Shown here in pieces: positions 3,228 to 33,909 of a stretch of DNA of 64,000 nucleotides (position 1 is the first letter of the stretch; every line of letters starts with the position of its first letter). The notes under the pieces are model-generated. The model saw nothing but the letters and a program-made list of their open reading frames with translations, did not search any database and was not told the origin of the DNA. The stretch is taken from assembly GCA_032027085.1 (NCBI GenBank), contig JAVSMS010000001.1:3449730-3513729 (forward strand), read 5' to 3'. The stretch is from Pseudorhodoplanes sp. Lineage in GTDB: Bacteria; Pseudomonadota; Alphaproteobacteria; Rhizobiales; Xanthobacteraceae. Both the position numbers and the translations under genes were made by a program.

Positions 3228-3923
3228 ATGGCTGAACGGAACAATCCGCCTGCCTTGTATCTGGATGCGATCGAGCGCCGTTATCACCAGGGCGACAACA
3301 CCCTCGAGATCTTGCGCGGCGCCGAACTGGGCTGCTGGCTCGGCCAGTCGATTGCGCTGATCGCACCCTCTGGTTCCGGAAAATCGACGCTTCTACATAT
3401 TGCCGGATTGCTGGAGCATCCGGATGCCGGAGAGGTCTACATCGACGGCGTGGCGACTTCCTCTTTGAGCGACGCCGAGCGTACCCAGATCCGCCGCACC
3501 GACATCGGCTTTGTTTATCAGGCGCATCATCTGTTGCCGGAATTCTCAGCGCTAGAAAATGTGATGTTGCCGCAAATGGTGCGGGGCCTCAGCAAGGCGG
3601 AAGCGAATAAACGCTCGACGGAATTGCTGGCTTATCTCGGCCTCAAGGCGCGCTTGACACACCGGCCGGCCGAACTCTCAGGCGGTGAGCAGCAGCGGGT
3701 TGCGATCGCGCGTGCAGTTGCCAACGCGCCGCGCATCCTGCTCGCCGACGAGCCGACCGGAAATCTTGATCCGCATACCGCCGATCATGTGTTCGACACC
3801 TTGATGCAACTGGTGAAAGCGTCGGGGCTTGCGGCGATCATCGCCACTCACAATCTCGACCTTGCCGCGCGCATGGACCGGCGTGTGACCATCCAGGAAG
3901 GATTGGTTGTCGAATTGGCGTAA
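3228..3923 (+). CDS. lolD: Lipoprotein-releasing ABC transporter ATP-binding protein LolD
   Basis: Cytoplasmic ATPase of LolCDE that powers lipoprotein release from the inner membrane. The start is the ATG at 3228 just after the lolC stop, giving 231 residues, usual for LolD; the open frame extends upstream only inside lolC. Walker A is APSGSGKST (about 46-54), the Q-loop glutamine is near 98 ([11 protein letters not shown]), the ABC signature is LSGGE at 150-154 and Walker B with the catalytic glutamate is [11 protein letters not shown] (171-181). It ends 17 bases before the stop of the convergent zinc-ribbon gene. Confidence 0.95.
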
Positions 3924-3939
3924 GAGATTGGCAGCCCGC

Positions 3940-4140
3940 TCAGTCGTCAATGCAACACTGCGTCATGTGCCCGCAGGCAGCGCATTCAAAGGTCCAGATC
4001 GAGGCGTGATGCAGCATGTGGTGATGCCCGACGGCATCTCCCGTCAGCAGCACAAGATGGGCTTTGCCACCGCAGTTCTCACACGCAATCGGCGTGATAT
4101 GCGGCAGGTTCGGAAAATGGACGTGCTGCGTCGACGACAT
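3940..4140 (-). CDS. Small zinc-ribbon-like protein of unknown function
   Basis: A 66-residue protein with two CxxC knuckles, CENC (about 20-23) and CAAC (53-56), separated by a histidine-rich stretch (GHHHMLHHA), plus a final QCCIDD. This is the pattern of a one-zinc ribbon. The start at 4140 is preceded on the minus strand by GGGAAAGGGG, a strong ribosome-binding site; the open frame extends upstream to 4350 but without such a site. Small proteins of this kind are found next to lolD/dnaE in related genomes as I remember them, without an assigned role. It is convergent with lolD. DNA, RNA or metal binding would be speculation. Confidence 0.75.
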   Translation of the reverse strand: MSSTQHVHFPNLPHITPIACENCGGKAHLVLLTGDAVGHHHMLHHASIWTFECAACGHMTQCCIDD

Positions 4141-4336
4141 ACGGCGCCCCTTTCCCGTCAGCGGGAGCGCGAGTGAATTCTCACCCAGTGCTGAATTCCA
4201 ACAACCGACAATAAAGTTTGTACCCGTTTGGCGAAGCTTGCGAGTGCGCATCGGGTGGGGGGCACTACCACTTTTTGAATAGCGGCTTAGGCCGGGCGGA
4301 CCAGACGCATTTGGCGCCCTTAGTGCATCATTGCGG

Positions 4337-4365
4337 TTGACAATGAACAAAAGGGGAACTATGTT
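4337..4365 (+). promoter_or_regulatory. Near-consensus sigma-70 promoter of the 32-residue peptide gene
   Basis: A perfect -35 hexamer TTGACA (4337-4342), a 17-bp spacer and a -10 hexamer TATGTT (4360-4365). This places the transcript start near 4372 and gives a leader of about 20 bases before the ATG at 4392. It is the best-looking promoter in the window, as expected for a gene held off by a repressor. Both LexA half-site pairs overlap it. Confidence 0.8.
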
Positions 4366-4377
4366 CCCTTTCTGTTC
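4345..4377. promoter_or_regulatory. Double LexA operator (two SOS boxes, inverted)
   Basis: Box 1 is GAAC-N7-GAAC at 4345-4359, the reverse complement of the alphaproteobacterial LexA consensus GTTC-N7-GTTC. Box 2 is GTTC-N7-GTTC at 4363-4377. Three bases separate them, and together they form a 33-bp near-perfect inverted repeat. Box 1 fills the -35/-10 spacer and box 2 covers the -10 and the start of transcription. Two LexA dimers bound here would block the promoter tightly. Confidence 0.85.
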
Positions 4378-4391
4378 TTTAGGAGAGATCG

Positions 4392-4490
4392 ATGTTTCGC
4401 ACCGTTATTGCTGAAGCCGCCGCTCTGACCTCCATGGCACTGTTCTTAGGGATGATCGCCATTTGGGCGCAGGTGCTGGGGACCTTGTGA
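4392..4490 (+). CDS. 32-residue single-span membrane peptide, predicted SOS-induced
   Basis: A very short gene with sequence MFRTVIAEAAALTSMALFLG (1-20) and then MIAIWAQVLGTL. Residues 5-31 are almost wholly hydrophobic and would form a single membrane helix, with an N-terminal arginine as topology signal. AGGAGAG (4381-4387) is a near-perfect Shine-Dalgarno at suitable distance from the ATG. Upstream lie a strong promoter and two LexA boxes, so the peptide should be made only during DNA damage. Known SOS micropeptides of this form act on the divisome (SidA, Caulobacter) or on membrane potential (TisB, E. coli). I claim no sequence homology to either, and the function here is inference. dnaE lies 282 bases downstream. 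Confidence 0.8.
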   Translation: MFRTVIAEAAALTSMALFLGMIAIWAQVLGTL

Positions 4491-4574
4491 GAACCATGCC
4501 GCGCCTGCCGCTCGCGCGTCTGCCCCGCGTGAGCGGCCTCCTTGTCTGCCGTTGCCTCCGAGTATTCCCCAAGT

Positions 4575-4594
4575 GGCGTCTGGAGACGCCGTTT
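4575..4594 (+). terminator. Possible weak terminator between the peptide gene and dnaE
   Basis: A GGCGTC/GACGCC stem (4575-4580 with 4585-4590), loop TGGA, is followed by only GTTT. The T tract is poor, so termination would be partial. It matters because it decides whether dnaE can be read from the SOS promoter. The rest of 4491-4772 shows no gene. Confidence 0.35.
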
Positions 4595-4772
4595 CGGCCG
4601 GGCGAGGCTTTGTTGCGTTGAGTTTGCGTAAGGCCTGCCCGGCCGCTTCTGGGATGATCCGCTCGTTTTGGGGACAGCGGGAATCCCGCCACGCCCGTCG
4701 TGAGGCACGGCTGGACTTGGCGCTCTGCAATCCCCACCATCGCGGCAAACCACAAAGATTCGCGAGGGCGTC

Positions 4773-7700
4773 ATGGCGGATGCACCCTTCGTGCACCTGC
4801 ATGTGCACTCTTCCTATTCCCTGCTTGAGGGGGCGCTGAAAATCGGCGCATTGGCTGATCTCGCCAAGGCCGACAAGCAGCCGGCGCTGGCGCTCACCGA
4901 CACCGACAACATGTTCGGGGCGCTGGAATTCTCTGAAAAGATGGCGGCGTCGGGCATTCAGCCGATTGTCGGCTGCTGCCTGTCGGTCGACTTTGGCGAT
5001 CAGGAGCGCGATCCGCGCAATCCGGGCCTCATGCGCAAGCTGCCGCGTCTTGTGCTGCTCGCTGCGCGGGAGGAGGGCTATCGCCGCCTGATGCGGCTCA
5101 ACTCGCGCGCCTTCCTGGAAACGCCCGCGCACGAGGCGCCGCATCTCAAGCTCGATTGGCTGCAGGGTGAATCCGACGGGATCATCGCGCTGACCGGCGG
5201 GCCGCTCGGGGGCCTCGACCAGGCGTTGCTGTCCGGCCAGAAGGATCTGGCCTTGGCGCGAGCGGACAAGCTGCTGCGCCTGTTCGGCGACCGCCTCTAT
5301 GTCGAGTTGCAGCGCCACGGCATGGCGGAGGAGCGGCAATGCGAGCCTTTGCTGGTCGAACTCGCCTACGCGAAGTCGTTGCCGCTGGTTGCAACCAACG
5401 AGCCGTTCTTTGCCGCCGCTGACGACTATGAGGCGCATGACGCGCTGATCTGCATCGCCGACGGCAAAGTCATTGCCGAAACCGATCGGCGCCAGCTCAC
5501 ACCCGAACATCGTTTCAAGTCGCAAGCCGAAATGAAGGCGCTGTTCGCCGATCTGCCTGAGGCCATCGCCTCGACGGCCGAGATCGCGCAGCGCTGCGCC
5601 TATCGTCCGCGCACGCGCGCACCCATTCTGCCGCGCTTCTCGACCGAGGCCAACGTTGTGACCGACGAAGCCGAAGAATTGCGCCGCCAGAGCGAAAGAG
5701 GCCTCGCGGCCCGTCTTGCGCATCACGGGTTCGCGCCAGGTCGCACCGCGCAGGATTATCAGGAGCGGCTGGCCTTCGAACTCGATGTCATCTCCCGCAT
5801 GAAATATGCGGGCTATTTTCTGATCGTGTCCGACTTCATCAAATGGGCGAAGGAACAGGGGATTCCGGTTGGGCCGGGTCGCGGTTCGGGCGCAGGCTCG
5901 CTTGTCGCCTATGCGCTCACCATCACCGATCTTGATCCGATCCGGTTCAACCTGCTGTTCGAGCGGTTTCTCAATCCGGATCGCGTGTCGATGCCGGACT
6001 TCGATATCGATTTCTGCCAGGACCGCCGCGACGAGGTGATCCGCTATGTGCAGGAGCGCTACGGGCGCGATCAGGTGGCGCAGATCATCACCTTCGGTAC
6101 GCTGCAGGCGCGCGGGGTGCTGCGCGATGTCGGCCGGGTGCTGGAAATGCCCTATGGCCAGGTCGACAAGCTCTGCAAGCTGGTGCCGCAAAATCCCGCC
6201 GCTCCGGTCACGCTGAAACAGGCGATCAACGATGAGCCGCGGCTGCAGGCGGCGCGAGATTCCGAGCCGGTGGTCAAACGCGCTTTCGATATCTCGCTGA
6301 AGCTCGAGGGGTTGACGCGCCACGCCTCGACCCACGCCGCCGGCATCGTCATCGGCGACCGCCCATTGTCGGAGCTTGTGCCGCTCTACCGCGATCCGAA
6401 ATCCGACATGCAAGTGACCCAGTTCAATATGAAATGGGTGGAGCCGGCGGGCCTCGTCAAATTTGACTTCCTCGGCCTCAAGACCCTCACGGTGCTGCGG
6501 CAGGCGGTCGATCTCGTGAAGCGGCGCGGCATCGACATCGATCTGTCGGCGATCCCGCTCGATGACCCGAAGACCTACGAGCTCCTCGCGCGGGCGGAGG
6601 CGGTCGGCATCTTCCAACTGGAAAGTCAGGGCATGCGGCGCGCGCTGCTCGACATGAAGCCCGACCGTTTTGAGGACATCATCGCGCTGGTCGCGCTCTA
6701 CCGTCCCGGTCCGATGGCGAATATTCCGACCTATTGCGCGCGCAAGCACGGCGACGAGGAGCCGGACTACATTCATCCGAAACTGGAAACGGTGCTGAAG
6801 GAAACCTTCGGCGTCATCGTCTACCAGGAACAGGTGATGCAGGCGGCGCAATTGCTCGCCGGCTATACGCTCGGCCAGGCTGACCTCCTGCGCCGCGCCA
6901 TGGGCAAGAAGATCCGCAGCGAGATGCAGGCGCAGCGCGCCGAATTCGTGAAGGGCGCCACCGAGCGCGGCGTCGAACGCGCGCAGGCGGATGCGATCTT
7001 CGATCTGCTCGAGCGCTTTGCCGAATATGGCTTCAACAAGAGTCACGCCGCCGCGTACGCGCTGGTTGCCTACCAGACGGCGTATATGAAGGCGAACTAC
7101 CCGGTCGAGTTTCTGGCCGCCTCGATGACGCTCGACATGAGCAATACCGACAAGCTGTCGGAATTCCGCGCGGAAGCGGAGCGTCTTGGGATCAAGATCG
7201 AACCGCCCTCGATCAACCGCTCATCGAAGAATTTCGAGGTCGAGGGCAACACGATCTTCTATGCGCTCGCGGCGCTGAAGGGAGTTGGCGGACAGGCGGT
7301 GGAATCGATCGTCGAAGTGCGCGGCAGGCAGCCTTTCCGCGATCTGTCGGATTTCGCACACCGCATCAATCCGCGCGCGGTCAACAAGCGCGTGCTGGAA
7401 AGCCTTGCCGCGGCGGGCGCCTTTGACGAGCTCGAGCCGAACCGCGCCCGCGCGCATGGCGCGGTGGAGGCTATATTGGCGACCGCGCAGCGCACGCACG
7501 AAGCCGCAACGATCGGTCAGGATGAATTGTTTGGTGGGCCGGCGCATCGGGAGGAATTGCGCATCCCCGCCCGCGAGCCTTGGCTGCCGTCCGAGCGGCT
7601 GCAGCGCGAATACGAGGCCATCGGCTTCTTCCTCACCGGCCATCCGCTCGATGACTATGCTGGAGCGCTGGCGCGGATGAAGGTGATGAACTGGGCGGAT

Positions 7701-8204
7701 TTCTCGCGCTCGGTCAAAATGGGAGCGACCGCTGGAAAAACCGCTGCAACTGTCGTTTCCAGGACGGAGAGGCGCACGAAGACCGGAAACAAGATGGGAA
7801 TAATCGGTCTTTCCGACCCGTCCGGCCAATACGAGGCGGTGCTGTTCTCCGAAGGCCTGCAGCAATACCGCGATTTGCTGGAGCCCGGCACGGCGGTTTT
7901 GCTGTTCCTGTCCGCCGAGGCCCAGGGAGAAGAAGTGCGCGCCCGCATCCAGTCGGTCGAACGCCTCGATCAGGCGGCCGAGAAGGTCCAGAAGGGCCTG
8001 CGCATCTTTTTGCGCGACGAGAAACCGCTGGAAGGCATCCATCGCCGCCTGGAGCCGCGCGGTGACGGGGATGTCAGCATGATTCTGATGCTGGCAGATG
8101 GCAGCGAGGTCGAGGTCAAGCTGCCGGGCCGCTTCAAGGTTTCCCCACAGGTCGCCGGTGCCATCAAAGCTGTCCCCGGGGTGGTCACGGTCGAGGCCGT
8201 CTAG
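4773..8204 (+). CDS. dnaE: DNA polymerase III subunit alpha (replicative)
   Basis: Catalytic subunit of the replicative polymerase, 1143 residues. The N-terminal PHP domain begins with FVHLHVHSSYSLLEGAL (from about 6). The polymerase core follows, with PGRGSGAGSLVAY and the catalytic acidic pair in MPDFDIDF at 407-414 (Asp409 and Asp411, matching Asp401/403 in E. coli). The C-terminal part holds the helix-hairpin-helix and OB domains (for example TVVSRTERRTKTGNKM). The length and motifs suit DnaE1, not the shorter error-prone DnaE2 partnered with ImuAB. The start is ATG 4773 with MADAPFVHLHVHSS. Its own promoter is not obvious. The upstream SOS promoter raises the question of damage-dependent read-through. 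Confidence 0.96.
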   Translation: MADAPFVHLHVHSSYSLLEGALKIGALADLAKADKQPALALTDTDNMFGALEFSEKMAASGIQPIVGCCLSVDFGDQERDPRNPGLMRKLPRLVLLAAREEGYRRLMRLNSRAFLETPAHEAPHLKLDWLQGESDGIIALTGGPLGGLDQALLSGQKDLALARADKLLRLFGDRLYVELQRHGMAEERQCEPLLVELAYAKSLPLVATNEPFFAAADDYEAHDALICIADGKVIAETDRRQLTPEHRFKSQAEMKALFADLPEAIASTAEIAQRCAYRPRTRAPILPRFSTEANVVTDEAEELRRQSERGLAARLAHHGFAPGRTAQDYQERLAFELDVISRMKYAGYFLIVSDFIKWAKEQGIPVGPGRGSGAGSLVAYALTITDLDPIRFNLLFERFLNPDRVSMPDFDIDFCQDRRDEVIRYVQERYGRDQVAQIITFGTLQARGVLRDVGRVLEMPYGQVDKLCKLVPQNPAAPVTLKQAINDEPRLQAARDSEPVVKRAFDISLKLEGLTRHASTHAAGIVIGDRPLSELVPLYRDPKSDMQVTQFNMKWVEPAGLVKFDFLGLKTLTVLRQAVDLVKRRGIDIDLSAIPLDDPKTYELLARAEAVGIFQLESQGMRRALLDMKPDRFEDIIALVALYRPGPMANIPTYCARKHGDEEPDYIHPKLETVLKETFGVIVYQEQVMQAAQLLAGYTLGQADLLRRAMGKKIRSEMQAQRAEFVKGATERGVERAQADAIFDLLERFAEYGFNKSHAAAYALVAYQTAYMKANYPVEFLAASMTLDMSNTDKLSEFRAEAERLGIKIEPPSINRSSKNFEVEGNTIFYALAALKGVGGQAVESIVEVRGRQPFRDLSDFAHRINPRAVNKRVLESLAAAGAFDELEPNRARAHGAVEAILATAQRTHEAATIGQDELFGGPAHREELRIPAREPWLPSERLQREYEAIGFFLTGHPLDDYAGALARMKVMNWADFSRSVKMGATAGKTAATVVSRTERRTKTGNKMGIIGLSDPSGQYEAVLFSEGLQQYRDLLEPGTAVLLFLSAEAQGEEVRARIQSVERLDQAAEKVQKGLRIFLRDEKPLEGIHRRLEPRGDGDVSMILMLADGSEVEVKLPGRFKVSPQVAGAIKAVPGVVTVEAV

Positions 8205-33106: not shown

Positions 33107-33802
33107 TCAGTAACGCCGGAACAGGCCGATCAGCTTGCCCTGGATGCGGACCCGGTTGGGCGGAAGAATGCGCACTTCATAAGCGGTGTTGGCCGGCTCA
33201 AGAGCGATGGACGCGCCGCGGCGGCGAAAGCGCTTCAATGTCGCTTCCTCATCGTCGATCAGCGCCACCACGATATCGCCGGTATCGGCGGTATCGGACT
33301 TGCGGATCAGCGCCATGTCGCCATCGAGGATGCCCGCCTCGATCATGGAATCGCCGCGCACTTCCAGCGCATAATGTTCGCCCGAAGTGAGCAGATCCGG
33401 CGGCATGTTGATGGTGTGGCTGCGGGTCTGAATCGCTTCGATCGGCGTACCGGCAGCGATCCGGCCCATGACAGGCACCGGCACGGGACGGCCACTGTCC
33501 TCCTCGGATGCCGTACGGACGCGGCCGAGATTGCCTTCGATGACGCTCGGGGTGAAGCCGCGCCGCAATCCACTGGTTGGCGTCGCCGATTCGGGCAGCT
33601 TGATCACCTCGATGGCGCGCGCCCGGTTGGGCAGGCGGCGGATGAACCCGCGCTCTTCCAGTGCGGTGATCAGCCGGTGGATGCCGGATTTGGAGCGCAG
33701 ATCCAGAGCGTCTTTCATCTCGTCGAAGGACGGCGGCACGCCGGCTTCCTTCAGGCGCTCATTGATGAAGCGCAGCAGCTCGAATTGCTTGCGGGTCAGC
33801 AT
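33107..33802 (-). CDS. lexA: Transcriptional repressor LexA
   Basis: Repressor of the SOS regulon, cleaving itself when bound by RecA filaments. I chose ATG 33802 ([17 protein letters not shown]), 231 residues; a TTG six bases upstream is closer to GGAG but unusual. The N-terminal winged helix is at 1-68 ([20 protein letters not shown] is the recognition region). The cleavage site is Ala117-Gly118 (IAAGTP). The Ser-Lys dyad is Ser152 (RGDSM) and Lys190 (EEATLKRF). A LexA box lies upstream, so it represses itself. Its predicted second target in the window is the peptide gene at 4392. Confidence 0.97.
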
Positions 33803-33882
33803 CGGCAAGACACTCCAGGTTCGGCCTCAGGGCTCCGTTCGACGATCCAGCCTCAAGGGCTAGAAACAAATCATGAACGGAC

Positions 33883-33909
33883 ACTATATGTTCCATATGT
33901 GTTCCGCAA
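33883..33909 (-). promoter_or_regulatory. lexA promoter with LexA box
   Basis: GTTC-N7-GTTC occurs exactly at 33890-33904, the alphaproteobacterial LexA operator. On the minus strand a possible -35 TTGCGG (33909-33904) and -10 TATAGT (33888-33883) flank it, although the spacer of 15 bp is short. The box sits about 90 bases before the lexA start. This is the expected autoregulation site. Confidence 0.8.

What the first reader, a model, noticed from the sequence alone, without database searches (positions are those of the whole stretch)
4337..4490. SOS-controlled 32-residue membrane peptide gene
Seen: a promoter TTGACA-N17-TATGTT, two LexA boxes, AGGAGAG and an ORF for a 32-residue peptide whose residues 5-31 form one hydrophobic helix. 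Known: SidA (Caulobacter) and TisB (E. coli) are LexA-controlled single-span micropeptides acting on cell division or membrane potential. Inference: this is a micropeptide of the same kind, perhaps not annotated because of its size. Its place right before dnaE would link replication stress to a membrane effect.
Basis: partly seen in the sequence, partly recalled or inferred. Interest (0 to 1): 0.85.

Follow-up and report, generated by a model that had tools for sequence, protein, structure and literature searches.

The report
SidA-type SOS micropeptide before dnaE
A tiny gene with the control sites of a DNA-damage gene encodes a 32-residue membrane peptide that looks like a distant version of SidA, the Caulobacter peptide that stops cell division after DNA damage, and relatives of it lie in many other bacteria of the same order.

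Summary
In detail: promoter, two exact LexA boxes, ribosome-binding site and a 32-codon ORF lie at 4337-4490, 282 bp before dnaE. The ORF behaves as a real gene: 80 of 80 named relatives have exactly 32 codons, 79 carry the same operator pair, 76 have dnaE downstream; in-frame pN/pS is 0.28. A broad profile hits 178 of 397 genomes of the order at E 0.01; 33 of 40 held-out hits have an exact LexA box, against 2 of 719 background windows. The link to SidA: in 29 of 30 SidA loci DnaE also begins right after sidA, behind LexA boxes, and the two families share an ungapped core above shuffled controls in both directions. Against: the window peptide alone scores within the shuffles and passes no curated model, so it is a divergent homologue by family, operator and place, not a filed member. 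Read from dnaE, box plus membrane micro-ORF occurs in 9 of 90 class genomes, the window included. Induction, translation and the FtsW target are inferred.

The parts
4337..4342 (+). -35 hexamer TTGACA
   Evidence: relatives printed
4345..4359 (-). LexA box 1 (GTTCCCCTTTTGTTC on the - strand, GAACN7GAAC on +)
   Evidence: pair in 79 of 80 loci
4360..4365 (+). -10 hexamer TATGTT, directly after box 1 and overlapping box 2
4363..4377 (+). LexA box 2 GTTCCCTTTCTGTTC
4381..4387 (+). ribosome-binding site AGGAGAG
   Evidence: by eye
4392..4490 (+). 32-residue membrane micropeptide gene, SidA-type
4507..4537 (+). 12-bp G+C-rich hairpin after the ORF, possible terminator with a weak T tail; hairpins here are not a consistent feature of relatives
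   Evidence: window above all 40 shuffles; 16 of 103 loci at 5% or less
4773..8204 (+). dnaE, DNA polymerase III alpha subunit, the recurrent neighbour
   Evidence: PF07733, PF17657, PF02811
33890..33904 (+). LexA box before lexA (lexA on the - strand, start codon at 33802-33800): the same box type at the repressor gene

Best explanation
The gene is a divergent SidA-type SOS cell-division inhibitor. LexA bound to two back-to-back boxes around the -10 region shuts the promoter tightly. When RecA filaments on damaged DNA make LexA cleave itself, a message is made and a 32-residue single-helix peptide enters the inner membrane. There it binds the septal wall-synthesis complex (most likely FtsW, with FtsN or FtsI near) and holds it inactive, so that division waits for repair. 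Shown here by sequence: operator, reading frame under selection, predicted helix, shared place before dnaE, shared core motif with SidA. Inferred: derepression on damage, translation, membrane insertion, FtsW as target, the division delay.
For: Frame: 80 of 80 named loci are 32 codons with ATG; pN/pS 0.28 in frame, 1.05 and 3.2 in the other two, over 95 distinct ORFs; entropy of codon positions 1, 2, 3: 0.63, 0.19, 1.13. Operator: pair 18 nt apart in 79 of 80 loci; held-out distant hits 33 of 40 exact and 40 of 40 with at most one mismatch, background 2 and 37 of 719. SidA link: NF033228 is over its cut-off in 71 of 119 genomes of family f115 and in the control Caulobacter vibrioides. Of the 30 best SidA loci, 29 have the DnaE N-terminal motif starting 40-86 nt after the sidA stop; 20 have an exact box and 30 one with at most one mismatch. 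Profile-profile A2 against SidA: probability 85%, 25 columns, no gap. A2 profile on 29 SidA peptides: mean 15.8 bits against 2.2 for class-preserving shuffles, largest of 40 means 3.7; SidA profile on 129 family peptides: mean 7.2 against 1.1, largest 1.7. dnaE-first test: 9 of 90 places with box plus membrane micro-ORF, 0 of 90 on the reverse strand. SEDS proteins: one per genome in 5 of 5 genomes of this order, two over the cut-off in 4 of 4 f115 genomes. FtsW A31 and F145, sites of SidA-suppressing changes in PMC4211646 (passages), read A and F in this genome.
Against: The window peptide scores 3.9 bits with the SidA profile, within the shuffle range. None of the 31 A2 members passed the curated SidA cut-off of 35 bits; one matched at all, 13.2 bits, E 0.067, and two unrelated families had isolated hits with better E in the same scan. 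With the narrow alignment the profile comparison gives 23%. The C-terminal third differs: W at +7 and mostly Q or D at +9 here, FVWM-C in SidA. FtsW sites are only partly kept in the 5 genomes of this order: A31 in 3, F145 in 5, A246 in 3 (S in this genome). No dnaE in the stretch read in 18 of 40 of the first distant set and 20 of 40 of the held-out set. Eight of 37 genomes of the window's own family gave no convincing member. No expression or phenotype data.
Confidence: 0.75

Rival explanations
1. A TisB- or DinQ-like SOS peptide that lowers the membrane potential and brings dormancy rather than stopping the divisome.
For: Similar size, one predicted helix, LexA boxes. DinQ is a toxic SOS-regulated single-span peptide of E. 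coli (start of the abstract of PMC3567139).
Against: Positional conservation of a few residues (E/D at -10 in 92%, S/A at -4 in 97% of 127 peptides, which were anchored on F-x6-W) and the family-level homology with SidA point to a partner protein. No promoter on the opposite strand in 3900-4900 by a simple scan, so no sign of an antisense RNA.
Confidence: 0.1
2. A leader ORF or leader RNA of dnaE: LexA controls dnaE supply and the peptide itself does little.
For: dnaE is the next gene in most near relatives; no consistent terminator hairpin lies between them.
Against: Amino-acid conservation against synonymous change. About half of the held-out distant members keep box and peptide without dnaE in the stretch read (19 of 40 by the pattern, 20 of 40 by that). 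Distance to the DnaE motif is variable (134 to over 800 nt). This genome has a hairpin between them.
Confidence: 0.07
3. An SOS-induced regulator of another membrane protein (transporter, protease, respiratory complex).
For: Small single-span subunits of such complexes are known (recalled); no target in these bacteria was found in print by the ten searches listed in the report.
Against: The homologous and similarly placed SidA acts on FtsW (PMC4211646, passages).
Confidence: 0.08

Closest known systems
SidA of Caulobacter crescentus (NCBIfam NF033228), SOS-induced inhibitor acting on FtsW
   Same: LexA boxes before the start, 29 against 32 residues, DnaE next, ungapped core E/D-x3-L/F-x-S/A-x3-F-x2-M.
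   Different: Below the curated cut-off. F-x6-W then mostly Q or D here, FVWM-C in SidA. Inverted operator pair in the window's family; in SidA loci the boxes stand in one orientation.
DidA of Caulobacter (71 residues, DriD-induced, binds FtsN; PMC4211646, passages)
   Same: Damage-induced single-span division inhibitor.
   Different: Over twice the length and SOS-independent. No sequence comparison made here.
YneA, SosA, ChiZ (division inhibitors of Gram-positive bacteria)
   Same: Damage-induced small membrane proteins; YneA interacts with FtsW (PMC13396833, title and passages).
   Different: Longer proteins (recalled). No sequence comparison made here.
TisB and DinQ of E. coli
   Same: SOS-regulated single-span peptides (DinQ by its abstract; TisB and both lengths recalled).
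   Different: Toxins with antisense RNA (DinQ by its abstract; TisB recalled); no opposite-strand promoter seen here.

Membership tests
SidA (NCBIfam NF033228) | Passes the curated score cut-off of 35 bits | tested here: not met
   Window peptide: no family at E 1 or E 10; best of 31 relatives 13.2 bits
SidA (NCBIfam NF033228) | Sequence homology of the family, profile against controls | tested here: met
   weaker with the narrow alignment, 23%
SidA (NCBIfam NF033228) | Sequence homology of the window peptide taken alone | tested here: not met
   3.9 bits with the SidA profile; 99th percentile of class-preserving shuffles 9.5
SidA (NCBIfam NF033228) | LexA box directly before the start | tested here: met
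   SidA loci
SidA (NCBIfam NF033228) | Place directly before dnaE | tested here: met
   Window, 76 of 80 named loci, 29 of 30 SidA loci
SidA (NCBIfam NF033228) | About 30 residues, one membrane helix | tested here: met
   (prediction only)
SidA (NCBIfam NF033228) | Induced by DNA damage through RecA and LexA | not testable with these tools
   no expression data
SidA (NCBIfam NF033228) | Acts on FtsW and stops division | not testable with these tools
   only three FtsW sites were looked at
TisB-type toxin | Antisense RNA partner | tested here: inconclusive
   no opposite-strand promoter in 3900-4900 by a simple consensus scan
TisB-type toxin | Depolarises the membrane | not testable with these tools
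   none

The most novel reading that the evidence does not exclude
LexA box, single-span micropeptide and dnaE form an ancestral module of Alphaproteobacteria, of which SidA is only the Caulobacter branch. It would be the general SOS division brake of the class, standing where SulA stands in E. coli, and its place before dnaE would raise the replicative polymerase while division is held. It went unseen because the peptide is too short and too variable for annotation.
Probability: 0.45. Interest if true: 0.85.

Novelty: new variant of a known kind. Interest (0 to 1): 0.76.

Why it matters
How bacteria such as Bradyrhizobium, Rhodopseudomonas and Afipia hold division after DNA damage is not described in the papers listed by the searches made here (open-licence library only). 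The gene gives a candidate with a known operator, a likely target and a single-gene deletion test. It also ties SidA, over its cut-off in 0 of 289 genomes sampled across the class and 71 of 119 of family f115, to a peptide whose profile hits 178 of 397 sampled genomes of another order (weak end of that list not verified). And it shows how operator plus neighbour can carry homology where a 30-residue sequence alone cannot.

Tried and rejected
Family libraries: the window peptide has no Pfam or NCBIfam hit at E 1. Scanning 31 relatives gave isolated single-member hits only: four in Pfam at E 0.024-0.07 and three in NCBIfam at E 0.011, 0.037 and 0.067; the third is SidA, which became the lead because of its biology, not its rank. 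PDB by profile: none at E 10. Plasmids: no match with two of the peptides; phages: none with the window peptide. A conserved terminator after the gene: not found (16 of 103 loci). Class-wide search with A2: 24 of 385 genomes. Outside the order I first set aside all but L183 (peptide of fitting form, no exact box); the dnaE-first reading then showed that the weak hit L189 (E 0.0081) is a box-led micro-ORF before dnaE (same place as L396). My first dnaE pattern missed the form of Caulobacteraceae and was widened. In one search minus-strand loci were not turned; redone. In one search three FtsW frames were read wrongly; redone.

Selection to be told: A2 was chosen by hand, mostly from hits with a LexA box, so its own boxes prove nothing; the 40 held-out places are the test, and they come from the middle of the list (E 2e-9 to 8e-5), not from its weak end. 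Of 51 places listed without a locus, 40 were fetched; 30 of the 40 have an exact box within 300 nt (my count from the print). One search used 107 of 110 loci (32-residue ORFs only). One search dropped six loci (L144, L163, L171, L299, L305, L306) and peptides outside 24-40 residues, and anchored on F-x6-W (127 of 129), so F and W there are invariant by construction. The SidA set is the 30 best of 71. Of 98 dnaE places listed, 90 were read, two of them cut short by contig ends (L444, L447). The f115 SidA L436 is not among the 9 because its hydrophobicity fell under my cut-off. The two background hits (of 250 windows) look like members themselves: L189 is the place of L396, and L236 is from the window's order.

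Full report
What is there. The promoter, two LexA boxes, ribosome-binding site and 32-codon ORF are at the stated places. The -10 hexamer begins right after box 1 and overlaps box 2. dnaE starts 282 bp after the stop (Pfam). The window also holds lexA, with the same box type before it, so a repressor with a matching box at its own gene lies 29 kb away.

Is it more than chance. A single box is not rare: 105 places on both strands of the genome against 125 for the pattern read backwards. The inverted pair with 3 nt between occurs once here and in 114 of 198 genomes of the family, with no backward-pattern match in the rows listed. A first search gave a match at E 7e-5 or better in 30 of 61 genomes, the own one included, and 32 of 61 at E 10. 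Turned to one strand, 30 of 30 of these loci have an exact box within 160 nt. A scan of named genomes gave 178 relatives, of which 80 were kept: Bradyrhizobium, Rhodopseudomonas, Afipia, Pseudolabrys, Pseudorhodoplanes, Variibacter and MAGs, with two odd titles (Frankia sp., Rhizobium sp.). All 80 are 32 codons with ATG; 79 have the pair 18 nt apart, 80 at least one box, and 76 the DnaE motif downstream. The window's genome shares its genus with G005, whose contig of 78,816 bases has the length of a contig of a Pseudorhodoplanes MAG.

Is it a protein gene. Over 95 distinct ORF sequences pN/pS is 0.28 in frame, 1.05 and 3.2 in the other frames, and the second codon position is nearly fixed. AlphaFold2 gives one helix, residues 2-31, mean pLDDT 97, from 30 sequences.

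How far it reaches. The narrow profile hit 79 of 397 genomes of the order. Many weak hits were short ORFs right behind a box. A broad alignment of 31 hit 178 of 397 at E 0.01. Of 40 hits that are not rows of that alignment, 33 have an exact box within 110 nt and 40 one with at most one mismatch; background windows gave 2 and 37 of 719. The DnaE motif follows in 20 of these 40 (21 by the pattern). So peptide and LexA box are kept more widely than the place before dnaE. Eight of 37 genomes of the window's own family gave no convincing member.

The link to SidA. One of 31 members of the broad alignment matched NCBIfam's SidA model, weakly (E 0.067, 13.2 bits, cut-off 35). The SidA model was then searched in the class (0 of 289 genomes over the cut-off, two sub-cut-off hits in f115 with exact boxes) and in family f115, where 71 of 119 genomes pass, as does the control Caulobacter vibrioides. 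That f115 is Caulobacteraceae is my inference from this. In 29 of the 30 best SidA loci the DnaE N-terminal motif begins 40-86 nt after the sidA stop; 20 of the 30 have an exact LexA box and 30 one with at most one mismatch. The two peptide families align without a gap over 25 columns, probability 85%. Each profile scores the other family well above shuffles that keep the pattern of hydrophobic and polar residues. Against this, the narrow alignment gives 23%, the window peptide alone 3.9 bits, within the shuffles, and none of the members tested passes the curated cut-off. I therefore call it a SidA-type homologue by family, operator and place, and do not file it under NF033228.

Starting from dnaE. 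To test the arrangement without using the peptide, the stretch before dnaE was read at 90 of 98 places in class genomes drawn mostly one per family. Sixteen of 85 with a recognised DnaE start have an exact box within 700 nt; a few of these lie so near the DnaE motif that they are probably chance. Nine of 90, the window included, have a box followed by an ATG-led membrane micro-ORF, none on the reverse strand. In 8 of the 9 an ATG lies 44-49 nt after the start of the box, as in the window (47). Four of the new ones keep a K-D pair before the helix (L396, L410, L433, L438). This fits an old module of the class, lost or moved in most families; the sample is thin, and the alternative that short SOS membrane peptides arose there more than once is open.

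Mechanism. SidA is a 29-residue inner-membrane protein that stops division by interacting with FtsW, and changes in FtsW and FtsI suppress it (PMC4211646, passages). YneA interacts with FtsW as well, and SidA was modelled on TM7 of FtsW with low confidence (PMC13396833, passages). The 5 genomes of this order examined have one SEDS protein each, by alignment FtsW; 4 of 4 f115 genomes have two over the cut-off. In this genome FtsW A31 and F145 are kept and A246 is S; over the 5 genomes A31 is kept in 3, F145 in 5, A246 in 3. As FtsW is conserved anyway, this is weak support. The double operator fits a peptide that would be harmful if leaky (inference).

What is known. Ten literature searches listed no paper whose title or abstract describes a SidA relative in these bacteria; the passages read in four SidA-citing papers name none either. 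The library lacks most subscription journals; the original SidA paper and Erill 2004 are not held. In the S. meliloti small-proteome paper a whole-word search of the main text found no dnaE, LexA or SOS; its supplements were not seen. The verdict on novelty is limited to what is held.

Noticed in passing
window 3943-4140 (-): A 66-residue ORF with CENCGG and CAACGH pairs, like a small zinc-ribbon protein, between the ABC-transporter gene and the micropeptide gene; no Pfam family at E 0.01.
   Followed up: partly
window 33614-33904: lexA on the - strand with a GTTCN7GTTC box about 87 nt before its start codon.
   Followed up: partly
L167 and L144: Second hits in genomes G376 and G029 with no exact LexA box within 300 nt and no DnaE motif in the stretch read; several other f44 genomes also show two hits.
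   Followed up: no
L156, L158, L162 (family f50): LexA box and peptide are kept but no DnaE motif follows in 2.2 kb; in L141 and L142 of the same family the wider pattern does find it.
   Followed up: no
f115 genomes, e.g. G1016:C65, G1045:C22, G983:C2: A second weak SidA-model hit inside a frame of roughly 430-540 residues, 2-3 kb from sidA, recurs; it may be chance similarity in one neighbouring protein.
   Followed up: no
L047: A record titled Frankia sp. RB7 carries the Bradyrhizobium-type locus; a contig of the same length (359,685) belongs to G373, placed in the window's family. The title looks wrong.
   Followed up: no
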